Positions 26,138 through 38,126 of a stretch of 64,000 bases of DNA are shown here, piece after piece. Where the stretch lies: assembly GCA_902619105.1 (NCBI GenBank), contig CACNCV010000003.1:62001-126000 (forward strand). Direction: 5' to 3'. A program made the translations under genes and the position numbers. The notes beneath the pieces were generated by a model. The model worked only from the letters and a program-made list of their open reading frames with translations. It ran no database searches and was not told where the DNA came from. Within the stretch, counting starts at the first letter, position 1; each line of letters starts with the position of its first letter. Source of the DNA: an uncultured Pelagibacteraceae bacterium (GTDB taxonomy: Bacteria > Pseudomonadota > Alphaproteobacteria > Pelagibacterales > AG-422-B15).

Positions 26138-26757
26138 CCTTATCACTTTATTCTGCATTATTTATTTTTGCGACCATTATGGTTATAACGCCTGGCCCCG
26201 CAAATTTATTACTAATGAGCGCTGGAGCCCAACATGGATTTTACAAGTCAGTACCTTTTGTAATAGGCGTTACCTGTGGGAAATTGTTTTTAACAATTGG
26301 TTTAGGAATTGGATTTTTAACTCTTTTGAACTCAAACCCGATATTGGTGAGTATTATTAAAGTAATTGGCACAGCCTATATATGCTGGCTTTCATGGAAA
26401 ATACTTTTTTTGAATTTTCAATCAACTGGAGGTGAACAAAATGAAAAGGTACCTAATTTTTTAAATGGTTTACTTGTTCACCCTTTAAATCCTAAAGGTT
26501 GGGCGATGGTAATCGCTGCTTATACACAATTCACTTCCTTTGGGAATACATACGCTTCTTCAAGTTGGATATTAGAAGTCATTATTGTTGCAGGGACATT
26601 TTTTCTCATTCAGTCAATTTCTCATTCTATATGGTGTTGGTCCGGTAGCTTAATATTTAAATTTTTAAGTAATAAAAATGTAATAAGACAAGCCGTAGTG
26701 ATTATTCTTGCTTTACTTACGATTGGTACAGTAGTTTACAGTAATTTTTTTATTTAA
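26134..26757 (+). CDS. LysE/RhtB-family amino acid exporter
   Basis: MVITPGPANLLLMSAGAQHGFYKSVPFVIGVTCG, LVHPLNPKGWAM. Confidence 0.85.
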   Translation: MTLSLYSALFIFATIMVITPGPANLLLMSAGAQHGFYKSVPFVIGVTCGKLFLTIGLGIGFLTLLNSNPILVSIIKVIGTAYICWLSWKILFLNFQSTGGEQNEKVPNFLNGLLVHPLNPKGWAMVIAAYTQFTSFGNTYASSSWILEVIIVAGTFFLIQSISHSIWCWSGSLIFKFLSNKNVIRQAVVIILALLTIGTVVYSNFFI

Positions 26758-27514
26758 TTTTACTGAGACTATTTTTTTCGACAGACTCACTAAAACTTGC
26801 AAATAATTTTTTTGAAAAGTCATCTGTAGTTGCTGAATACTCTGGATGCCATTGAACTCCATAAAAGTAACCGCTGTAATTTGATAAACTGATAGCTTCA
26901 ACTGTTTCGTCTTTAGCGACACCTTCAATAACCAGATTATTTGCTATTTTATCGATTCCTTGAGTATGAAGTGAATTTACCTCTATAGTTGGTGTACCGG
27001 CCAACTTTTCAAATTTTCCATTTTCAGTTAAATAAACTTCATGCTGTTTTGAAAATTGTACTTCTGGATCATCAGATTCTGGGCACCTGTGATCCATTCT
27101 TCCTGGTACATCATGAATATCTGCGTGAAGAGAGCCACCCATTGCAACGTTAACTTCTTGAAAGCCCCTACAAATAGCTAACATAGGAATTTCATTTTTA
27201 AATATGAAATCAATCATAGGGAGAACAGTCTTATCTCGATCGATGTCTAATGGTTCAACTATTTTGTCTTTATTATAAAACTCAGGATAAACGTTTGAGA
27301 GACTGCCTGTTAGCATCACCCCATCAAATTTTCTCAAAGTGTTTCTGTAGTCAATTGTTGAGCCAAGGGCTGGTAAAATGACAGGTATGCAGCTAGTAGC
27401 TTCAGCCACAGCTTTTATATAGTTCGTTCCTGACGCATGATATGTCCGATGCAATTCAGCTTTTTCAATTACGTCGGCAAATACAGCAATTAGTGGCTTA
27501 TTTTGAGTATCCAT
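26750..27514 (-). CDS. Gamma-glutamyl-gamma-aminobutyrate hydrolase-family peptidase (PuuD-like)
   Basis: GVMLTGSLSNVYPEFY, PMLAICRGFQEVNVAMGGSLHADI, NSLHTQGI, GVQWHPEY. Confidence 0.9.
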   Translation of the reverse strand: MDTQNKPLIAVFADVIEKAELHRTYHASGTNYIKAVAEATSCIPVILPALGSTIDYRNTLRKFDGVMLTGSLSNVYPEFYNKDKIVEPLDIDRDKTVLPMIDFIFKNEIPMLAICRGFQEVNVAMGGSLHADIHDVPGRMDHRCPESDDPEVQFSKQHEVYLTENGKFEKLAGTPTIEVNSLHTQGIDKIANNLVIEGVAKDETVEAISLSNYSGYFYGVQWHPEYSATTDDFSKKLFASFSESVEKNSLSKIK

Positions 27515-27562
27515 AAAAAAATTAGTTTACTAATATCAGGATAATATCATATAACAACTTTA

Positions 27563-28768
27563 ATGGTTATAAATATTCAAGATAAACAATCACAACATAA
27601 AGCAATGTCTGCATGGGATGACGTCTTGGTCATCGATGATCAACTTTCGAGTGAAGAGAAAATTTTAAAGTCGTCAGTGAGATCTTATTGCCAGGAAAAA
27701 CTCTTACCTAGAATCATAGAGGACAACAGAAATGAAAATTTCAGTAGAGAGATTTTCAATGAAATGGGTGAGCTTGGAATTCTAGGTTCTTATTTACATG
27801 GATATGGATGTGCGGGCACAAATTACGTTTCTTATGGGCTTATTGCTCGAGAAATTGAAAATATTGATAGTGCATACCGATCTATCATGTCGGTTCAAAC
27901 AAGTCTTGTTATGTTTCCTATATATCAATTTGGTACTGATGCACAAAAAGAAGAATATTTACCAAGACTTGCAAAAGGGGAAATCATTGGAAGCTTCGGT
28001 CTGACTGAGCCTGATGCAGGTAGTGATCCTGGTGCAATGAAAACCAAAGCGATAAAAGTCAAAGGGGGTTATGAATTGACTGGTACCAAGACATGGATCA
28101 GTAATGCACCCTTCGCAGATGTAATTATTGTTTGGGCCAAGGATGAAGATAATGTAATCAGAGGATTTATTGTGGACAGAGAGTCCAAAGGCCTATCAAC
28201 ACCTAAAATTGAAGGTAAATTATCTTTGCGCGCTTCAGCAACGGGGCAAGTTGTTATGGAAAATGTTTTTTGTTCGGAAGATAAAGTTTTACCAAAAGCA
28301 TCAGGCTTGGGCGGACCTTTTCAATGCTTAAATAGTGCAAGATACGGAATTTCATGGGGTGCTCTAGGAGCAGCAGAGTTTTGTTTTGCAACAGCTAGAC
28401 AATACGCGTTGGATAGAATGATGTTTGGAAAACCTATTGCTGGCACTCAGCTTGTTCAGTCTAAGTTAGTTGATATGCAGACAGAAATTGCTTTAGGTCT
28501 GCAGGCTGCACTTAGAGTTGGGCGTCTGATGGATGAAGATCAGTCAGATAGCAATATGGTAAGTCTCATAAAAAGAAATAATGTTGGAAAAAGTTTAGAT
28601 ATTTGTAGGAGTGCGAGAGATATTCTTGGTGGCAACGGTATTTCAGATGAGTATCATGTAATGAGACACATGGTAAATTTGGAAACCGTAAAGACATATG
28701 AAGGTACACACGATGTGCATACTTTAATTATGGGAAGAAACTTAACAGGCATACAGGCTTTTAAATAA
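27563..28768 (+). CDS. Acyl-CoA dehydrogenase, glutaryl-CoA dehydrogenase-like
   Basis: [67 protein letters not shown]. Confidence 0.88.
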
Positions 28769-28770
28769 TT

Positions 28771-30135
28771 ATGGCTTATCTAAATCGTACAACAAAGCAA
28801 TGGCAGGAAATTGATACAGCTCATCATCTGCATCCTTTTACTGATTATAAGTCGCTTGCAAAAGAAGGTAGTATCATCATTACAAAAGCAGATGGTGTTC
28901 ACCTTACTACATCAGATGATAAACAGTTACTTGATGCCATGTCTGGCTTATGGTGTGTAAATGTAGGTTATGGAAGAAAGAATCTTGCAGATGTTGCCTA
29001 TAAGCAAATGCAAGAACTACCTTATTATAATTCTTTTTTTAAAACAGCGACACCGCCATCAATTGAACTTGCTAAAGAGTTAGCTGAAATTAGTCCACAC
29101 GATTTAAATCATGCATTCTTTTCTTCAAGTGGCTCTGAAGCCAACGATACTGTTGTAAGAATGGTAAGGAGATATTGGGATTTAAAAGGTAAGCCAAATA
29201 AAAAAACATTTATTAGTAGAGAATATGCTTATCACGGAAGTACGATGACTGGGATGAGTTTGGGCGGTATGACAGCGATGCATTCTCAAGGGGATATGAT
29301 GCCTGGTTTTGAACATGTGTTGCCTCCTTATTGGTACAAGTATGGAAGCGATATGTCTCATGATGATTTTGGTATTCATGCAGCTAATAAAATTGAAGAA
29401 AAAATAAATGAAATTGGTCCAGATAATATTGCGGCGTTTATAGGAGAACCAATTCAAGGAGCTGGAGGAGTTATCATTCCACCTGATACCTATTGGCCAA
29501 GAGTTCAAGAAATTTGTAAAAAATATGACATTCTTCTTGTTGTTGATGAAGTCATTTGTGGTTTCGGTAGAACTGGAAACTGGTTTGGATCAGATACTTA
29601 TAATATTAAACCTGACATTATTACTATGGCCAAAGGGATTACCTCAGGATATATCCCACTGTCTGGAATCATGATTTGCGACAGAGTTTGTGAAACTTTA
29701 ATCAATGAGGGTGGTGAATTCTACCATGGTTATACTTATTCTGGCCACCCAGTAGCTTGTGCAGTGAGCCTTGAAAATCTTAAAATTATCAAAGAAGAAA
29801 ATCTGATTGAACAATCACGAAATGTCTCAGTTTATCTGGAGCAGCAAATGCGCGAAATTGAAAAGCACCCTTTAGTTGGTGAAGTTAGAATGAAGAGCTT
29901 TATTGGAGCTGTAGAATTAGTGAAAGATAAAGAAACTAGAGAAATGTTTGAAGACACTGGCACAGTTGGAACGATTTGCAGAGACTATTGTATTGAAAAC
30001 GGTTTAGTAATGCGAGCTGTAAGAGATGGCATGATTTTCTGCCCGCCTCTTATATTCAATAATAACCATGTGGATGAACTTTGTGAAAAGCTAAAAACCT
30101 CGCTGGACCAAACACTGGATCATATATCTAAATAG
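28771..30135 (+). CDS. Class III (omega) aminotransferase, SpuC-like
   Basis: FFSSSGSEANDTVVRMVRRYW, YHGSTMTGMSL, LLVVDEVICGFGRTG, TMAKGITSGYIPLSG. Confidence 0.92.
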   Translation: MAYLNRTTKQWQEIDTAHHLHPFTDYKSLAKEGSIIITKADGVHLTTSDDKQLLDAMSGLWCVNVGYGRKNLADVAYKQMQELPYYNSFFKTATPPSIELAKELAEISPHDLNHAFFSSSGSEANDTVVRMVRRYWDLKGKPNKKTFISREYAYHGSTMTGMSLGGMTAMHSQGDMMPGFEHVLPPYWYKYGSDMSHDDFGIHAANKIEEKINEIGPDNIAAFIGEPIQGAGGVIIPPDTYWPRVQEICKKYDILLVVDEVICGFGRTGNWFGSDTYNIKPDIITMAKGITSGYIPLSGIMICDRVCETLINEGGEFYHGYTYSGHPVACAVSLENLKIIKEENLIEQSRNVSVYLEQQMREIEKHPLVGEVRMKSFIGAVELVKDKETREMFEDTGTVGTICRDYCIENGLVMRAVRDGMIFCPPLIFNNNHVDELCEKLKTSLDQTLDHISK

Positions 30136-30352
30136 GCCAATTAAGAGAATCTGAGTCTGCTCCTTCATTAAAAATATTTACCCAATAACAATTAGACCCG
30201 TCACTTTTATACAAACCTTTGACATCAAAAATAGTTTCACTGTCAAGATGTGAAATTATTAAATAGTTTGAATGCTGCGACAAATATTCAGCGCCTCTAA
30301 ATTTATTTTCATTAAGAGGCGCACAAAGTAAAAAAATGATTGATTCAACCAT
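30128..30352 (-). CDS. Hypothetical protein (74 aa)
   Basis: Intact ORF in a minus-strand run of small genes; no recognised motif. Confidence 0.4.
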   Translation of the reverse strand: MVESIIFLLCAPLNENKFRGAEYLSQHSNYLIISHLDSETIFDVKGLYKSDGSNCYWVNIFNEGADSDSLNWPI

Positions 30353-30367
30353 TTGGAATTTTAAATA

Positions 30368-30724
30368 CTAAAATTGTAGATAGTATAGTTCTTGCATGAT
30401 GGCTATAAAAACTCTTAGGACTGCTAGAGCTACCATTACTTTTGCAGCATATCCCCAAAAAGCAGAGTTGCCTTCTGATTTTTTGTTTGAAATATAATTA
30501 GTGGAGCTTCTCCAAATTGAAACTAGTATGTGAACCAGTAGTGCTATGAAAACTATGTAAAGTATTAATACTCCTGAAATCATGTCATTTACAATAGCGC
30601 CATCCATTAAGTAAAGAATTGAATAGCCAGCTATATTTCCAAAAATTATGCCATATACCCAATAAGTCATTACCAAGGGCACATCCCCATGCCAAAGATC
30701 TTTAATTAATTTCATTTTTATCAA
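30368..30724 (-). CDS. Hypothetical membrane protein (118 aa)
   Basis: Three predicted TM stretches; overlaps next minus-strand ORF. Confidence 0.55.
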   Translation of the reverse strand: MIKMKLIKDLWHGDVPLVMTYWVYGIIFGNIAGYSILYLMDGAIVNDMISGVLILYIVFIALLVHILVSIWRSSTNYISNKKSEGNSAFWGYAAKVMVALAVLRVFIAIMQELYYLQF

Positions 30725-30917
30725 CCTTTCTTGTTGAGATAATTCTTAGTTTATTATTACTTTCAGTATAGTCACTTAAATTATCTTTATAAACAGTAGA
30801 ATCAGGGTCACAAATTTTGGCAATAGCTATCGCGCGAGCTTCTCTTTCAGTTTTTGCCTGCACATATATATTTTCAATATCTGTGACCAACACTCTTACA
30901 TGATACGTATTGGACAT
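30702..30917 (-). CDS. Hypothetical small protein (71 aa)
   Basis: Starts with YHVRVLVTDIENIYVQAKTEREARAIAIAK, overlaps neighbours as in an operon. Confidence 0.5.
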   Translation of the reverse strand: MSNTYHVRVLVTDIENIYVQAKTEREARAIAIAKICDPDSTVYKDNLSDYTESNNKLRIISTRKVDKNEIN

Positions 30918-31108
30918 TACTTCTTACCTTTATCTTCAATCATTTCTTCCCCACTATTTTCTTTCTCAGTGTCGAATGAAGAGGTAATAAGAGTCCAAAC
31001 AGCAGTTAATCCAAAGAAGCTAAACCAATATCCTGAAGCTGGCATAATGTATGTAAATACTACTATCTGCTCTATGATACCAAGGATTATCCAAGTTTTT
31101 AGTGTCAT
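30917..31108 (-). CDS. Hypothetical small membrane protein (63 aa)
   Basis: One or two TM helices and charged tail; abuts the preceding ORF. Confidence 0.5.
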   Translation of the reverse strand: MTLKTWIILGIIEQIVVFTYIMPASGYWFSFFGLTAVWTLITSSFDTEKENSGEEMIEDKGKK

Positions 31109-31205
31109 TTTATGTTCCTTTCTTTTTTACGTTTTTAAATTATGATTTGAATATATTTATTAAATTCTAATTTACTGGAACAATAGAAAGGCTCAAAAAG
31201 TTCCT

Positions 31206-31685
31206 ATGGCAGTAGATCGTAAAATTGATACTTTAGAAGGCGCACTAAGGGATGCCATCGAAAGATTTGGTTCTGAAAAAGTAGCTGAAGCTATTGGCAA
31301 AAGTAAAGATTATGTAAATAATTTAAGTAATCCAAATCAAAAAAATATTGGTGAGCGAAGAAGAAAAAAAATCTCTCATGAAGACTCGATAATTCTTGAT
31401 AAATTTTGCTTAGAGAATGAAATGGCACCTCCAATGATCGCTGTTCATCAAATGCTGATTGATAATTATAGGTCTAATTTAGACCCATCAAGATCGATTG
31501 AGCAAAGCATAAGTACAATTTCATATAGATTTGCTGAGGTTGTAAATAAAGTCGAAACGTCTCTTGATCCTAATAGTGAAAAAGGAATTGATTTTAGTGA
31601 AAATGAAAAAAAACAAATCCATACTTCAATTAAGGAGCTTGAAGAACAATTGAAAGTATTTAAAAACTTAATATCCTTAAAATGA
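31206..31685 (+). CDS. Putative DNA-binding regulator, phage CII-like
   Basis: N-terminal helix-turn-helix-like IERFGSEKVAEAIGKSKDYVNNLSNPNQ, coiled C-terminus; first gene before pLGIC homolog. Confidence 0.5.
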   Translation: MAVDRKIDTLEGALRDAIERFGSEKVAEAIGKSKDYVNNLSNPNQKNIGERRRKKISHEDSIILDKFCLENEMAPPMIAVHQMLIDNYRSNLDPSRSIEQSISTISYRFAEVVNKVETSLDPNSEKGIDFSENEKKQIHTSIKELEEQLKVFKNLISLK

Positions 31686-31688
31686 ATA

Positions 31689-33485
31689 ATGCCTAAAATA
31701 ATATTTAAAATTTCAATAATTTTATTGACTTTTTTTGCTACGATTTTGATCGCAAGGGCTGAGACAGATCAGTTTGAACTTTCAAATGATCCATGTGGTG
31801 ATTTATTTAATTCAATTAGCAATAATATCCAAACTTTACAAAATGCACCTGGGCTAAGCAGACAATATTATGGTTTTAGCATTGAGCCTGCATTTATTGA
31901 TGGTCATGAATTAGATGGTGTTTCAAGTAAAGATGAAGTTGAGAATTTTTTGATTGTCACTGAGGTGCCCAATCAAAATGATAATACATACTATATGATG
32001 GATCAAAATAATGTTTATCAATCTTATATAAAGTCTGAAAGTTCTACAGGATCAGTATACAAAACTGATGGACTTATGGTCGGTGACTTGATCTATGAAA
32101 TTAATGGTTTGAAGGTTAATTCAAATAATTTTTATGATGCCTGGCAAAACCTTTATTTGTATTACGGAAAAAATTATTCTTTTACGGAGTATGTTTTATT
32201 TGATTTTGTTAATGAGGAATTAGGCATAGACCTGAACAATCAAGATACTATCCAGCTTGGAATTTACAGACCTAGTGAGTTTAGTGGAGACCATGTCGTA
32301 AGCTTAGATGAAGACTTAATGTATATCAAAATCACATCTGATAATGATTATCCAATAATTCCTGCTGAGCTTGAATTGGACATAGAAAAGATAATTGAGA
32401 TAAATAGTAAGGGAAATTATTTTGAAGCAAACTATGTTAAAAATTTAATTAATTGGGATAAGTCTGAATTAGCTGATTTGTCCTCAAAAATTTTTGGCAA
32501 TAATAGTTATTTTTGTTACTGGGAAGAAACTGATATTGAGTATGGTACATTGCAAGCGTTATGGAGGCCTGCAGTAAAATGGACAAACAGACTTGGTTTT
32601 GACAAGGATCAAATCAAGAATTCAATTCATGTTCAGTTTTATCCTGAAATATTGGAAAACAATTGTCCCTGCGCAGTTGTATTTTTTAGGGAAGAGGGTA
32701 TTGCAAAATTCCAGACATACTTTGATTATAGATCCTTTCCATTCGATAAACAAAACCTATCCATATCACTTTTTAACTATGGCGATGGTTATACATATGG
32801 TACGGAAACTCTAAATTGGTCTTTTGGTGATGCAAAGCCAAAATTTGTAGGTGCAAAATTTATCAGTCCAGAAAGAGTTAGAAGGGATATATCGGGCTGG
32901 TCAATCAATAGTGAAGACAAGTATGACGTTGAAATTGTAAAAGTTTTCGACTCTTCTGAATTTAGATCGGAGATTGAAAAAGGAATAGTTTTAGCTGATT
33001 CAGTAAATTGGGATACAAGAGATATTTTTACCTTTGAAATGAATTGGCAAAAAGACATTGAGAGACAATGGGTTTACTTTTTTTTTAAAATTATAGCTCC
33101 ACTTGTTCTTATACTTTTAATTTGTTGGTCGGTGTTCTGGACACCTAGCAGGGAACTTGAATCAAGACTCACAGTAACAATTACATGTTTTTTAGCGCTT
33201 GTTGCTTACACTTTTGTTATAGATGATGATTTACCGCAGTTATCTTATCTTACGCTGATGGATTACGTAATTTTAGTTACTTATTTTTTTGCGTCACTTC
33301 CAACTGTATTGAGTATTATTTCTTATAATTTAGCAAAAGAAAATAACAGTTCTAATATAACAGTTGACAGATTTAGTAGATATTCAGGACCTTTTCTGTA
33401 TATAATTTCACTCTATATAATTTTAACATTTAATGTAAATGAAGAAAATACTCTGCCAATTGCGAAATCTTTAGTGCTCTTCTAA
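31689..33485 (+). CDS. Pentameric ligand-gated ion channel homolog with N-terminal signal peptide and PDZ-like domain (paralog 1)
   Basis: Signal peptide; PDZ-like DGLMVGDLIYEINGLKV; pLGIC loop A-like LWRP, Pro-loop FDYRSFPFDKQNLSI; TM module VFWTPSRELESRLTVTITCFLALVAYTFVIDDDLPQLSYLTLMDYVIL. Confidence 0.82.
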   Translation: MPKIIFKISIILLTFFATILIARAETDQFELSNDPCGDLFNSISNNIQTLQNAPGLSRQYYGFSIEPAFIDGHELDGVSSKDEVENFLIVTEVPNQNDNTYYMMDQNNVYQSYIKSESSTGSVYKTDGLMVGDLIYEINGLKVNSNNFYDAWQNLYLYYGKNYSFTEYVLFDFVNEELGIDLNNQDTIQLGIYRPSEFSGDHVVSLDEDLMYIKITSDNDYPIIPAELELDIEKIIEINSKGNYFEANYVKNLINWDKSELADLSSKIFGNNSYFCYWEETDIEYGTLQALWRPAVKWTNRLGFDKDQIKNSIHVQFYPEILENNCPCAVVFFREEGIAKFQTYFDYRSFPFDKQNLSISLFNYGDGYTYGTETLNWSFGDAKPKFVGAKFISPERVRRDISGWSINSEDKYDVEIVKVFDSSEFRSEIEKGIVLADSVNWDTRDIFTFEMNWQKDIERQWVYFFFKIIAPLVLILLICWSVFWTPSRELESRLTVTITCFLALVAYTFVIDDDLPQLSYLTLMDYVILVTYFFASLPTVLSIISYNLAKENNSSNITVDRFSRYSGPFLYIISLYIILTFNVNEENTLPIAKSLVLF

Positions 33486-34207
33486 TGGAAACACAACTTT
33501 TACTTTTTTTATATTTCTTACTTGTGATGGGTCCTCCCGTTATCTTAGCAACTATTTTCGTAAGACTAGATATTTTCAGAGAGCCAATAAGAGCTGTCGT
33601 TCTTACTCTTATTATTTCTTACGCTGCTACGTCAATCTTTGGTGAAATTAAATACGGAATTCTTGATATACCAGATGCCTGGTACGATAACAATTTTATA
33701 AATTCACTTTTCTTAATTGCATTACCTGAGGAATTGACAAAATTCTTTGTACTTTACTTTTACTGCGCGAGAATAAGAGCCTTCAATGAACCAATGGACG
33801 GTCTTGTTTATGGTTCTTTATCAGGACTGGGCTTTGCAATCAATGAAGCTTTTGGTTATGCCTACCTTTATCAAGAAGAGTCCTCAGAGGTTATCGAGGT
33901 TGTAGATAGTATTCTTATGAGAGGATTAATAGCCGTGCCCGGACATGCATTTGATGGCATTTTAATGGGCGCATTTATTGGCGTAATGATCTTTAGAAAA
34001 GTGAACAAAAGCTTATTTATTTTATTGGCGATATTAGTTCCAACAATTTTTCATTTCCTTTGGGACTTCAGTATATACGCGGGTTATGGAGGATTTGTAT
34101 ACTTAATTTACTTCATACAATTAATAATTGTTGTCCTCTTATTTAGGCGTTTTCGTAATTTACAAAAATCAAAAATCCGAGAAGAAGAGCTAAAAATTAA
34201 CAAATAA
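33485..34207 (+). CDS. PrsW-family intramembrane-associated protease
   Basis: ALPEELTKFFVLYFY, MDGLVYGSLSGLGFAINEAFGYA, VPGHAFDGILMGAFIG; ATG overlaps TAA of upstream channel gene. Confidence 0.75.
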   Translation: METQLLLFLYFLLVMGPPVILATIFVRLDIFREPIRAVVLTLIISYAATSIFGEIKYGILDIPDAWYDNNFINSLFLIALPEELTKFFVLYFYCARIRAFNEPMDGLVYGSLSGLGFAINEAFGYAYLYQEESSEVIEVVDSILMRGLIAVPGHAFDGILMGAFIGVMIFRKVNKSLFILLAILVPTIFHFLWDFSIYAGYGGFVYLIYFIQLIIVVLLFRRFRNLQKSKIREEELKINK

Positions 34208-34250
34208 CTGGAACTTATTTTAATTGTTATTGTTCCAGTAATTTTGTCTT
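34207..34250 (+). terminator. Possible terminator or operator hairpin after PrsW gene
   Basis: ACTGGAAC (34207-34214) ... GTTCCAGT (34232-34239) followed by weak T-rich AATTTTGTCTTT. Confidence 0.45.
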
Positions 34251-34296
34251 TGGATCCTTATATTTCATTCAAATGAAAAATCGAAAGGAAAAAAAG

Positions 34297-34548
34297 ATGA
34301 AAAAACTAATGTTGATCCTTATTGCTGTAATCGGTTTATCGGGTTCAGTAAATGCTGGCGTGAGCTGCAGTGAAGATTTCTTTGGAAATTATAATTGCAC
34401 AAGTTCTGGTGATACAGGCAACTGGAGGTCTAGCACTTCTACTGATTACTTTGGTAATGATAACACAACGATATATGACAGAGACTCATTTGGCAGCTCT
34501 AGCTATAGCTGTTCTTATGATTATTTTGGAAATTATAACTGTAATTAA
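34297..34548 (+). CDS. Small secreted repeat protein (83 aa precursor)
   Basis: Signal peptide MKKLMLILIAVIGLSGSVNAG then CSEDFFGNYNC / TDYFGNDNT / DRDSFGSSS / CSYDYFGNYNC; internal ATG 34297 preferred over 34273. Confidence 0.65.
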   Translation: MKKLMLILIAVIGLSGSVNAGVSCSEDFFGNYNCTSSGDTGNWRSSTSTDYFGNDNTTIYDRDSFGSSSYSCSYDYFGNYNCN

Positions 34549-34556
34549 AAAAAAAA

Positions 34557-34582
34557 TTCCAGGCTAATTAATTAGCCTGGAA
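34557..34582. repeat. 26-bp perfect palindrome
   Basis: TTCCAGGCTAATT|AATTAGCCTGGAA; preceded by A-tract, so T-tract lies on the minus strand. Confidence 0.9.
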
Positions 34583-34596
34583 AGAAAGGATTAAAA

Positions 34597-34812
34597 GTGA
34601 AAAAAAATAGAAATACAGAGGAATTTAAAAAATTTATCAATTCTTCATCGGTAAAGAATATATCTGGAGAAGAAAAAACAAATAACATTAAAAAGTTTTG
34701 GGGAAAAAAATTAACTACCAAAAGAAAAGGTAAGTCGCGACCAGAAATAGGACTGGAATTTAAAAGAATGCACTTAGCAAAGAAAAAAGTATCGAAAGGC
34801 ACATATGAATAA
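34597..34812 (+). CDS. Small basic hypothetical protein (71 aa)
   Basis: Lys/Arg-rich ORF, overlaps DUF2130 gene start by 8 bp. Confidence 0.45.
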   Translation: MKKNRNTEEFKKFINSSSVKNISGEEKTNNIKKFWGKKLTTKRKGKSRPEIGLEFKRMHLAKKKVSKGTYE

Positions 34813-35989
34813 TAATCAAATTAAATGCCCATATTGCAAAGAAGAATTCTCAATAGGAGAAGCATTAGACAAACATGAAAATGAAATTAGAATTAAAATT
34901 GAAGAAGAAAATAAATCTAAAATTAAATCTCTAAAATCTAAGCTAGAACAAGACGCAAAAGCTAAGGCAGTGAAACTTGTTGATGACAAATTAAAAATGG
35001 AGAGAGATAAAATGATATCACGCGCTCGAAAAGATATAGAAATAGAACAAAAAAGAGAAATAAGCCAAGTAAAAGCTGAATTAGAAATAAAACATCAACA
35101 TAAAATTCAATCATTACAAAAACAAAATGAGAGAAAGGAAGAGCTCAACAAAGAACATTTAGAAAAAGAAAAACAAAAGATAAAAAGTGAGCTTGAGAGT
35201 AAGGTTGCTGCGGAGAAACTTGCAATTGAGGAAAATAATGCGAAGAAAATAAAATCGCTTGAAATAGATAATGCACGTCTCAAGAAAACTGTAATAGAAT
35301 CAGCTCGTAAAGCAAAACAAGGTGCTGTTGAACATCAAGGTGAAGTTCAAGAGGAAGTTCTTGAAGACTTCTTGAGAAGAAATTTTGAATATGATCAATT
35401 CGAACCCATAAAGAAAGGTGCTAAAGGTGCTGACATTTTACAAACAGTTTATAAAAGAGATGAAGATGTCGGAAAAATACTCTGGGAGAGTAAAGACGCT
35501 GTAAATTATAACAAGGCTTGGGAAGAAAAGTTACTCAATGACATGACCGAAACAAATGCCATGTTTGGTATAATTGTAACTGAGGTCATGCCAGCAGAAT
35601 CTAAAGGACTTATACAGTTCAGGGCGAACGGCAAAATAATAATTTGCCCAATGAAATGGGCTAGTATTCACACTGTAACTAGTTTACTTAGACCTATTGT
35701 TGATGCTTTTTCAAGGGAAACAAAAAATCATCAGAGCTTATCACAGCAAAAAGACGCCCTATATCAATTAGTGAGTAGTCCAAGATTTAAACTTATGGTG
35801 CAACAGCTAATGAATGAATTTGAAAGTGAATACCAGCAATTAGAAAGAGATAAAAAATCAAATACCAGAAGTATTCTAGCGAGAGAAAAAAACTTAGAAA
35901 ATAAAAAAAGTTATATAGACAATTTGATTACACAAATTGCAATTGAAGCAGACTTAAAAGAATACCTTACTGAAAACACCAATTATTAA
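34805..35989 (+). CDS. DUF2130 domain-containing coiled-coil protein
   Basis: IKCPYCKEEFSIGEAL, long coiled coil, GEVQEEVLEDFLRRNFEYDQFEPIKKGAKGADILQ, ILWESKDAVNYNKAWEEKLLNDM. Confidence 0.8.
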   Translation: MNNNQIKCPYCKEEFSIGEALDKHENEIRIKIEEENKSKIKSLKSKLEQDAKAKAVKLVDDKLKMERDKMISRARKDIEIEQKREISQVKAELEIKHQHKIQSLQKQNERKEELNKEHLEKEKQKIKSELESKVAAEKLAIEENNAKKIKSLEIDNARLKKTVIESARKAKQGAVEHQGEVQEEVLEDFLRRNFEYDQFEPIKKGAKGADILQTVYKRDEDVGKILWESKDAVNYNKAWEEKLLNDMTETNAMFGIIVTEVMPAESKGLIQFRANGKIIICPMKWASIHTVTSLLRPIVDAFSRETKNHQSLSQQKDALYQLVSSPRFKLMVQQLMNEFESEYQQLERDKKSNTRSILAREKNLENKKSYIDNLITQIAIEADLKEYLTENTNY

Positions 35990-36047
35990 CAAAGCTTTAG
36001 AACTTAAACTCTCTTGATACAGACAGTCAATGATGTAAGATTATGAA

Positions 36048-38126
36048 GTGAAGTTCCTGCAAATAGTTTTTTGTTTAATAGTTTATATTTTCTCATTTCC
36101 TGCGATTGCAGATAATTTTTGTAATATATTAGCGTTAGAAATCGAAAAAAATTTACCTCAATTTACGAAGACGCCATACTATGATCTGAGTCCTTACTAT
36201 GGTTTTGATGTTATTGAAGGAGACGACTACCTTGAAGTTACTCATATAAATCAAATGCATCCACTGTCCGGCTTATTGACTTCTGATGATGGAGAGAAAC
36301 AAATTGTTATAAGAAATCATTTTGAAATAAATGATCTAGTTAAAGACGATAAAAGCGCTCAAAAAAACAAAGAAATTGAAATTTCAAAAAAACAATATCA
36401 AGAATATAATCATAGTTACCTCAAAATAGGCGATTTGATTTATTCAATTAATGGTAAAGATATTACTGATAAGTTTATTGGTGAAGAATTTTTAGACTAT
36501 TTTGATGAGTTCGTTTCAAAAGAATACAGCGATATTATTAAAAATGAATATAACGGTGATAAAGAATTATTTATTTTTGACAAAGTAGTATTACATAGAA
36601 ACTACAGAAATGATCTAATTGATCAAATAAATGCAAGAATACGTGAAATAAGAGATATTTCTCCAAAAGTATTCGCAGGATATTTTGGTTTACCCTTTAA
36701 CAAGGAAAAATTAAAAAATTATCTGAGGAGAGAAGCCGAAGGAAGAGAAAGAGCTGATTATCGGGACGTTGTCTATAATTATAGATACCCAGTAAATGAC
36801 CATAAATTAACTCTTGGAATTTTTAGGCCAGATGCTTTTGATGGGGATATTGATGAAAATGGCGTTATGCACTTTACCGAAAAAGACCTCTTTTATTTTG
36901 ACGTTTACCCTTCATATAATACCGATAATATCGATGTAAGTGTAGAATACGAATTTTATGATATTCGCAATATAGATGTTCAAAATAATATTTTTACTGC
37001 TGATTATAAATTGAAACTTAGGTGGTACGATACTAATCTTGGAAACCTCGCGGCAGAAATTTTTGCGAGAAACGAAAAAAATTTCAATGAATACGGTGAA
37101 TTTTTAATTGCTCCTGAAAGAGATAACAGGTGTTCGTATGATAATAGTGATGCAAATTATGAAATTATAAGTAAAGTTTGGCGACCAGATTATTATAAAT
37201 TGAATCAATTAAGCACTGAAAAAAATAAATATAAGGAAAATATAACTATTATGCCTTTTTTACAAACAATCCATGACTCAAGAAAAAATATCTTAATGGT
37301 GACTCAAACTGAGAGTGGAACTTCACAATTTACGTTAAATTTTGATTACTCATCCTTCCCATTTGATACTCAAACATTGTCAATAGGAATAGAACAAAAA
37401 ACACAAAGAAGTTTTTCAAGATTGCCATATTCGGTTTCGGATAGATTTAATCCAGCCAAATCTATTGATCTATCAAAGAGCATGGAAGCATTTAATCATA
37501 AACTTTCAGGTTGGGAAATGGCTGAAAAACCTATTAATCAAATTAAATTTGAGATAACTGAGATTAAAGACGATCGTAAAATTAATTTATTAAGCAATTA
37601 TGATGTGCTAAATGATAAAAACTTTGAAAATTCTTATTATCAAATAAAAGATAGATTTAACGATGAGTTTACACAAGTAATAATATTCTCAAAAAAAATA
37701 GATCGAAATTGGAAATATTTTGTTTTTAAAATTATTGCACCGATCATATTAATATTAGTTGTTTGCTGGTCAATATTTTGGACGCCATCAAGAGAATTAG
37801 AATCAAGATTAACAGTTACAATTACATGCTTTTTAGCACTTGTTGCATACACATTTGTCATAGACGATGATCTGCCTAAGTTGTCCTATCTAACTTTAAT
37901 GGATTATATTATTCTTATTTCTTACTTCTATGCGGCTATGCCAACAATCTTGAGTGTTATTTCTCATAAATTATATAATCAAAACAATCTTTCTAACATT
38001 AAGTTAGATTATTACGCAAAATTTTTGGGTCCAATTACTTACGTGCTCTTAATTTATGCTATTATATTTGGAACTGTATCATCTAACAATTCAATACCAT
38101 TCTTAAAAGCAATAACTTTCCAATAA
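36048..38126 (+). CDS. Pentameric ligand-gated ion channel homolog with N-terminal signal peptide and PDZ-like domain (paralog 2)
   Basis: GTG start; signal peptide; YLKIGDLIYSINGKDI; LRWYDTNLGNL, VWRPDYYKLNQ, FDYSSFPFDTQTLSI; TM module IFWTPSRELESRLTVTITCFLALVAYTFVIDDDLPKLSYLTLMDYIIL. Confidence 0.82.
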   Translation: MKFLQIVFCLIVYIFSFPAIADNFCNILALEIEKNLPQFTKTPYYDLSPYYGFDVIEGDDYLEVTHINQMHPLSGLLTSDDGEKQIVIRNHFEINDLVKDDKSAQKNKEIEISKKQYQEYNHSYLKIGDLIYSINGKDITDKFIGEEFLDYFDEFVSKEYSDIIKNEYNGDKELFIFDKVVLHRNYRNDLIDQINARIREIRDISPKVFAGYFGLPFNKEKLKNYLRREAEGRERADYRDVVYNYRYPVNDHKLTLGIFRPDAFDGDIDENGVMHFTEKDLFYFDVYPSYNTDNIDVSVEYEFYDIRNIDVQNNIFTADYKLKLRWYDTNLGNLAAEIFARNEKNFNEYGEFLIAPERDNRCSYDNSDANYEIISKVWRPDYYKLNQLSTEKNKYKENITIMPFLQTIHDSRKNILMVTQTESGTSQFTLNFDYSSFPFDTQTLSIGIEQKTQRSFSRLPYSVSDRFNPAKSIDLSKSMEAFNHKLSGWEMAEKPINQIKFEITEIKDDRKINLLSNYDVLNDKNFENSYYQIKDRFNDEFTQVIIFSKKIDRNWKYFVFKIIAPIILILVVCWSIFWTPSRELESRLTVTITCFLALVAYTFVIDDDLPKLSYLTLMDYIILISYFYAAMPTILSVISHKLYNQNNLSNIKLDYYAKFLGPITYVLLIYAIIFGTVSSNNSIPFLKAITFQ

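What the first reader, a model, noticed from the sequence alone, without database searches (positions are those of the whole stretch)
31206..38126. Candidate undescribed module: CII-like regulator, PDZ-pLGIC, PrsW protease, secreted repeat protein, DUF2130, PDZ-pLGIC
All genes are on + strand with tight spacing (31685/31689, a stop-start overlap at 33485, 34812/34805) and sit between unrelated metabolic genes. Regulator + ion channel + membrane protease + small secreted protein + cytosolic coiled-coil protein is a plausible envelope signalling or stress-sensing circuit. Functional linkage is inference from synteny in one genome.
Basis: inference. Interest (0 to 1): 0.82.

Follow-up and report, generated by a model that had tools for sequence, protein, structure and literature searches.

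The report
Mobile channel-and-protease module in SAR11
A stretch of DNA in an ocean SAR11-type bacterium is a self-contained, horizontally acquired gene cassette that pairs a relative of animal neurotransmitter receptors with a membrane-cutting protease, its own gene switch and a small exported protein, and the same set recurs at dozens of places in other marine bacteria, which gives a concrete handle on what these bacterial receptors do.

Summary
Window 30135-38124 (7,990 bp) is missing in at least 25 same-genus genomes: the two flanks abut there, within 17 bp in the close relatives, so the whole block is one acquired cassette. It is larger than reported, because a minus-strand arm (30128-31108) belongs to it.

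In 398 genomes of the order (SAR11/Pelagibacterales), 25 carry both a pentameric channel (pLGIC) and PrsW. In all 25 they lie within 10 kb, and in 20 within 2 kb. A wider scan gave 77 loci at up to 38 sites, including SAR86 and another gammaproteobacterium. Most hold PrsW (53) or the CII-like regulator (59).

The channels carry an N-terminal PDZ domain, are predicted cation-selective, and fold like ELIC. PrsW catalytic residues are conserved. Fixed-spacing inverted repeats sit between the regulator and small exported or membrane protein genes, including two in this window.

Best mechanism, inferred: an envelope-sensing circuit in which a PDZ-controlled cation channel works with intramembrane proteolysis under a CII-like autoregulator. 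A conflict or cell-death role and amine sensing are live rivals. I found no description of this system in the searched papers.

The parts
30135..38124 (.). the whole inserted cassette (7,990 bp)
   Evidence: Flanks 30134 and 38125 abut (0-17 bp apart) in 17 same-genus genomes at 88-99.7% identity, and lie 104-113 bp apart by alignment in ten more diverged ones, so no insert there; cassette GC 0.309 versus 0.343 for the rest of the window
30368..30724 (-). small multi-pass membrane protein (c4mem; TTG start listed, an ATG lies 3 codons in)
   Evidence: homologs in 34 related loci, typically just upstream of the regulator or next to PrsW
30917..31108 (-). 63-aa membrane protein
   Evidence: homologs in 19 module loci, downstream of the channel gene in several, best E 1.5e-17
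30702..30917 (-). 71-aa frame, no homolog in other module loci
   Evidence: uncertain gene (weak BrnT-like match E 4e-4, below cut-off)
30128..30352 (-). 74-aa frame at the left edge, no homolog in other module loci
   Evidence: uncertain gene, its stop codon lies across the boundary
31177..31204 (+). operator-like inverted repeat GGAAC-N18-GTTCC just before the regulator start codon
   Evidence: 2 such sites in the window, 0.13 expected; 1 of 100 shuffles reaches 2
31206..31685 (+). CII-like (Phage_CP76 family) helix-turn-helix regulator
   Evidence: family profile matches, phrog_101 E 1.5e-6 for a homolog; model of seven helices, pLDDT 83, nearest PDB folds are helix-turn-helix regulators including phage 186 CII but all at E > 0.1
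31689..33485 (+). PDZ-fused pentameric ligand-gated ion channel 1 (PDZ region roughly residues 55-160; ligand-binding domain about 187-459; four TM helices 461-582)
33485..34207 (+). PrsW-family intramembrane protease
   Evidence: PF13367 E 6.6e-32; E82, E83, K86, E121, H154, H190 invariant in 54 of 54 module homologs
34210..34236 (+). operator-like inverted repeat, ACTGGAAC-N17-GTTCCAGT in full
   Evidence: lies 36 bp before the small exported protein gene
34273..34548 (+). small exported protein with DxFGNxxC-type repeats (signal peptide from the second Met)
   Evidence: homologs at two other module loci, L195 E 2.5e-15 and L210 E 8e-12, each beside an operator repeat
34557..34582 (.). perfect palindromic hairpin, terminator-like on the minus strand
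34597..34812 (+). 71-aa frame overlapping DUF2130, no homolog in other module loci
   Evidence: uncertain gene
34805..35989 (+). DUF2130 coiled-coil protein
   Evidence: PF09903 E 1.2e-26; in 3 of 4 occurrences in channel-bearing genomes of the order it sits inside a module
36048..38126 (+). PDZ-fused pentameric ligand-gated ion channel 2 (GTG start)
   Evidence: sister of channel 1 in the tree (SH-aLRT 100), so a within-lineage duplication

Best explanation
The cassette is a mobile envelope-sensing circuit. Shown: it moved in as one block, and its core (CII-like regulator, PrsW protease, PDZ-fused pLGIC) is a recurrent unit, usually with small exported or membrane proteins. Inferred from family knowledge: the PDZ domain in the periplasm reads a peptide or protein end (as PDZ domains of DegS, DegP and RseP do) and sets the gate of a cation-selective pentameric channel; PrsW cuts a membrane-anchored partner when the same signal is present; the CII-like regulator binds inverted repeats in front of its own operon and of the small exported or membrane protein gene, and so sets the level of the whole circuit. 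Channel opening would change membrane potential or ion content as the fast output, and gene expression would be the slow one. That the parts are a functional unit is near certain (about 0.95); the sensing mechanism and role are my best guess.
For: Empty site in 25 or more relatives. Channel and PrsW co-occur in 25 of 398 genomes (46 and 48 carriers; Fisher p 2e-14), always within 10 kb and 20 times within 2 kb, where chance gives under 1% per genome. 21 of 24 regulator genes lie within 5 kb of a channel. 77 loci in 38 flank groups, PrsW present in 26 groups and the regulator in 26. Start-stop overlaps regulator/PrsW/channel in many loci. PDZ profile closest to the PDZ tandem of the Aquifex RseP-type site-2 protease, E 2.8e-8. 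Pore: E at -2' in 24 of 25, L at 9' and P at 23' in 25 of 25, FPFD Pro-loop in 24 of 25. PrsW catalytic residues 54 of 54. Operators: GGACAA-N23-TTGTCC 17 times with identical spacing, CGTAGG-N16-CCTACG 9 times, nearly all beside the regulator or a small exported/membrane gene; phage 186 CII binds an inverted repeat two helical turns apart (PMC6593788).
Against: No substrate of PrsW, no ligand and no expression data are known. Some module loci have the regulator and channel with secreted trypsin and caspase instead of PrsW (16 of 77), so PrsW is not obligatory. PrsW also occurs with other membrane partners and no channel, so it need not act on the channel. The window's own operator pair is only moderately beyond chance, and inverted repeats of 7 bp or more are not rare in this AT-rich DNA. 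The PDZ part of the model is of low confidence.
Confidence: 0.45

Rival explanations
1. It is a biological conflict or cell-death system: proteases (PrsW, secreted trypsin-like and caspase-like) sense an invader or envelope damage and the channel is the effector that depolarises the cell.
For: Related loci carry catalytically intact caspase-like (19 of 19) and trypsin-like (29 of 29) proteases next to channel and regulator; the module is patchy, mobile and swaps its membrane partner; caspase/trypsin pairs are typical of described conflict systems (PMC7159879).
Against: No convincing PADLOC match for any core part; the caspase matches only a generic caspase model. The flanks are housekeeping genes, not a defence island. 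No relatives in viral contigs, phages or plasmids. Many partners are exported (secreted caspase, amine oxidase, small proteins), unlike typical cytoplasmic anti-phage systems.
Confidence: 0.25
2. It is a small-molecule (amine) receptor system for nutrient or chemical sensing; the channel's ligand-binding domain detects primary amines as ELIC does.
For: The short partner channel is next to a Tat-signal flavin amine oxidase in 12 of 13 such loci; ELIC is gated by primary amines (PMC3119659 abstract); closest fold is ELIC5; the genes left of the insertion look like amine/GABA metabolism.
Against: The window has neither the short channel nor the oxidase; the left flank is shared by relatives that lack the module, so it says nothing; it does not explain PrsW, PDZ or the regulator.
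Confidence: 0.15
3. The genes share only an insertion hot spot and have no functional link.
For: Modules do insert at a few preferred sites, and SAR11 has variable regions.
Against: The same partners stay within one or two genes of each other at 26 flank groups, often with overlapping stop and start codons; solo channels of the sister clade never show these neighbours.
Confidence: 0.02

Closest known systems
Prokaryotic pentameric ligand-gated ion channels (GLIC, ELIC, DeCLIC; Pro-loop receptors)
   Same: fold, Pro-loop FPFD, four TM helices, M2 with E at -2' and L at 9'; DeCLIC also has a large N-terminal domain and is the nearest solved relative by sequence (E 6e-28)
   Different: the N-terminal domain here is PDZ-like; the genes sit with PrsW and a CII-like regulator; earlier gene-neighbourhood work reported PBP-II, Cache and a Na+/H+ symporter (PMC549065), and neither that paper nor PMC4795631 mentions PDZ
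PrsW-type regulated intramembrane proteolysis (B. subtilis PrsW/RsiW)
   Same: PrsW family protease with all catalytic residues
   Different: no anti-sigma factor seen in the module; the protease is paired with an ion channel or other two-TM proteins
RseP/DegS envelope stress pathway
   Same: periplasmic PDZ domain plus intramembrane protease; the A5 profile's best hit is an RseP-type PDZ tandem
   Different: the PDZ is fused to an ion channel, and the protease is PrsW, not a site-2 metalloprotease
Phage 186 CII (PF06892) regulators
   Same: helix-turn-helix family; operator-like inverted repeats with long spacers
   Different: not in a prophage; arm sequences differ between module subtypes
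Peptidase-rich conflict systems (Kaur et al. 2020, PMC7159879)
   Same: caspase- and trypsin-like peptidases in a variable, modular locus in the related loci
   Different: that paper mentions neither PrsW nor ligand-gated channels; no NTPase core was seen here; many parts are exported

Membership tests
pentameric ligand-gated ion channel | ligand-binding beta-sandwich plus four TM helices, Pro-loop | tested here: met
   fold search TM 0.84 to ELIC5; FPFD 24 of 25
pentameric ligand-gated ion channel | pentameric, ligand-gated ion conduction | not testable with these tools
   needs electrophysiology
PDZ domain | PDZ fold and carboxylate-loop/GDxIxxING motif | tested here: met
   profile A5 matches PDZ structures, E 2.8e-8; 11 of 25 members match Pfam PDZ, best 7e-6; the window protein alone only E 0.18
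PrsW intramembrane protease | PF13367 match and conserved glutamates and histidines | tested here: met
   E 6.6e-32; 54 of 54
PrsW intramembrane protease | proteolysis of an anti-sigma factor | not tested
   no anti-sigma factor seen in the window cassette
CII (Phage_CP76) regulator | PF06892 profile match above cut-off | tested here: inconclusive
   window protein 15.9 bits versus cut-off 26; 13 of 21 family members match at E <= 0.01, best 3e-7
CII (Phage_CP76) regulator | binds an inverted repeat about two helical turns apart near a promoter | tested here: inconclusive
   fixed-spacing inverted repeats found next to the gene; centre spacing about 22-23 bp in the window and CGTAGG class, about 29 bp in the GGACAA class; binding not tested
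DUF2130 | PF09903 match | tested here: met
   E 1.2e-26
known anti-phage defence system | core proteins match PADLOC models | tested here: not met
   no convincing match for window core proteins
RseP/DegS envelope stress pathway | site-2 metalloprotease and RseA-type anti-sigma factor | tested here: not met
   protease is PrsW; no such genes in the cassette

The most novel reading that the evidence does not exclude
A bacterial neurotransmitter-receptor homolog is gated by a peptide signal made by its own operon: the small exported protein, processed by the module's proteases, is read by the PDZ or ligand-binding domain, so that proteolysis is turned into an electrical response, in a system that moves between marine bacteria as a cassette.
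Probability: 0.15. Interest if true: 0.95.

Novelty: categorically new. Interest (0 to 1): 0.82.

Why it matters
The physiological role of pentameric ligand-gated channels in bacteria is a long-standing open question. Here such channels are tied, by an exact insertion and by recurrence at dozens of sites, to an intramembrane protease, a dedicated regulator with operator-like sites and a small exported protein. That turns the question into testable ones (what the PDZ binds, what PrsW cuts, when the operon is on), in some of the most abundant bacteria of the ocean.

Tried and rejected
Single-sequence scans of genome and viral collections with the window channel found nothing; a profile was needed. 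The profile scan of viral contigs and protein searches of phages and plasmids gave no relative, so carriage on a phage or plasmid is not supported. PADLOC and Pfam on 61 flanking proteins: housekeeping genes; the PADLOC matches look like models that also hit housekeeping families such as primase and phospholipase D; a matched control set was prepared but not scanned. Profile of the regulator against the PDB gave no hit, and the fold search only weak ones. Membership of DUF2130 in the PD-(D/E)XK nucleases was suspected from a WESK motif; a motif search did not settle it, so I do not claim it. I first called one exported protein family 'VWA'; Pfam finds nothing in it, so that name is dropped. 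Chance clustering and hot-spot co-location were considered and rejected.
Full report
Observation. Domain scans confirm PrsW and DUF2130 outright; both channels match the neurotransmitter-gated channel models and are 37% identical to each other. The genome is 1.24 Mb. Contigs of sister genomes have the same lengths as records named Pelagibacteraceae (for example 78,058 bases, AG-430-P03; 92,659 bases, AG-422-B15), so the window belongs to the SAR11 order; that identification is inferred.

Boundaries. In same-genus relatives, 35 of 44 genomes (the window's own included) have the left neighbour, an aminotransferase, at 85-100% identity over most of its length. Aligning the region showed no insert in the 27 genomes where both flanks could be seen: in 17 the sequence up to window 30134 is followed within 0-17 bases by window 38125 or 38140, at 88-99.7% identity; in ten more diverged genomes the aligned flanks are 104-113 bases apart; two loci were uninformative. 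The junction lies between convergent genes. So 30135-38124 came in as one block of 7,990 bp.

Recurrence. With a profile of the channel, 46 of 398 genomes of the order have a channel of this kind; 48 have PrsW; 25 have both (Fisher p 2e-14, without correction for relatedness). In all 25 the two lie within 10 kb, in 20 within 2 kb. The regulator, searched in 58 genomes, was found 24 times, 21 within 5 kb of a channel. DUF2130 was found in only 4 of the 46 channel genomes, 3 times inside a module. A tree of 55 channels separates long, linked channels from a 15-row clade of about 415-aa solo channels, which serves as an internal control without these neighbours. A scan of 85,488 species genomes returned 77 loci, mostly SAR11 single cells, also SAR86 (L230), another gammaproteobacterial MAG (L205) and other Alphaproteobacteria (L170, L173, L188, L209). 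They fall in 38 flank groups (some split by short contigs); PrsW occurs in 26 and the regulator in 26. Only 3 of 77 loci have none of PrsW, regulator, trypsin or caspase. The profile used for that scan was built largely from linked channels, so the order-wide search is the fairer test.

Variants. One type is regulator-PrsW-channel, often with a second, short channel beside an exported flavin amine oxidase (12 of 13 loci with the short channel). Another has secreted caspase-like and trypsin-like proteases, regulator and channel, followed by tandem arrays of a roughly 200-aa exported protein. In loci where PrsW occurs without a channel the slot is often taken by a pair of two-TM proteins or other exported proteins, sometimes with the same regulator and DUF2130.

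Parts. Channel: AlphaFold model, mean pLDDT 68, confident in the ligand-binding and TM parts, poor in the N-terminal part; best PDB matches are ELIC, GLIC and GABA-A receptors. M2 has E at -2' (24 of 25), L at 9' and P at 23' (25 of 25), which by family knowledge predicts a cation channel with a hydrophobic gate. N-terminal domain: profile matches PDZ domains, best the RseP-type tandem of Aquifex. PrsW: catalytic residues invariant in 54 of 54. Regulator: Phage_CP76 family in 13 of 21 members, helix-turn-helix fold with weak matches to phage 186 CII among others. Small exported protein: homologs at L195 and L210.

Operators. Upstream regions of the regulator hold inverted repeats. GGACAA-N23-TTGTCC occurs 17 times in 1.2 Mb of module loci, always with the same spacing although 18-26 was allowed, nearly always between the regulator and a divergent small exported protein gene or before a small membrane protein gene. 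CGTAGG-N16-CCTACG occurs 9 times, each beside the regulator, often facing a small membrane protein gene. The window has its own pair, GGAAC-N18-GTTCC and GGAAC-N17-GTTCC, before the regulator and before the small exported protein (2 found, 0.13 expected). [quoted passage not shown] Binding here is inferred.

Mechanism and rivals. The shown facts are the insertion, the linkage, the conserved catalytic and pore residues and the repeats. The sensing role, the PrsW substrate, the ligand and the output are inferred. Conflict system and amine sensing remain possible. Flanking genes are housekeeping and no relative was found in viral, phage or plasmid collections.

Novelty. No held open-access paper contains both 'pentameric ligand-gated ion channel' and PrsW, or SAR11 with either term used. 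Tasneem et al. (PMC549065) and Jaiteh et al. (PMC4795631) describe other neighbours or only note Pelagibacter channels. Papers in subscription journals could not be searched. Each part belongs to a known family; the combination, as a recurrent mobile system, appears undescribed.

Noticed in passing
L122, L125, L126, L130, L131, L133, L134, L137, L138: PrsW islands without a channel carry a pair of two-TM proteins (about 290 aa each) in its place; L133 and L138 also have the regulator, DUF2130 and a neighbouring protein conserved between them.
   Followed up: partly
L082, L083, L084, L089, L090, L091, L099: A Tat-signal flavin amine oxidase is encoded in the same module as a short (about 400 aa) channel, usually directly beside it.
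   Followed up: partly
L095, L100, L107, L211, L213, L226, L235: Tandem arrays of two to eight divergent exported proteins of about 200 aa without Pfam match beside the channel and proteases.
   Followed up: no
L017, L018, L021, L103, L092: TerB domain protein next to a large coiled-coil membrane protein, near the channel or PrsW.
   Followed up: no
L024, L025, L101, L104-L106, L108-L110, L112-L116: A separate clade of solo channels of about 415 aa without PDZ domain or module neighbours; some share their flanking genes with each other.
   Followed up: partly
L188: The channel gene is split into two frames (172 and 288 aa), possibly a frameshift or pseudogene.
   Followed up: no
window 34557-34582: A perfect 26-bp palindrome TTCCAGGCTAATTAATTAGCCTGGAA, terminator-like on the minus strand.
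   Followed up: partly
window 26750-30135: Left flank encodes a class I amidotransferase-like hydrolase, an acyl-CoA dehydrogenase and an aminotransferase that look like amine/GABA metabolism; the aminotransferase is shared by relatives that lack the cassette.
   Followed up: partly
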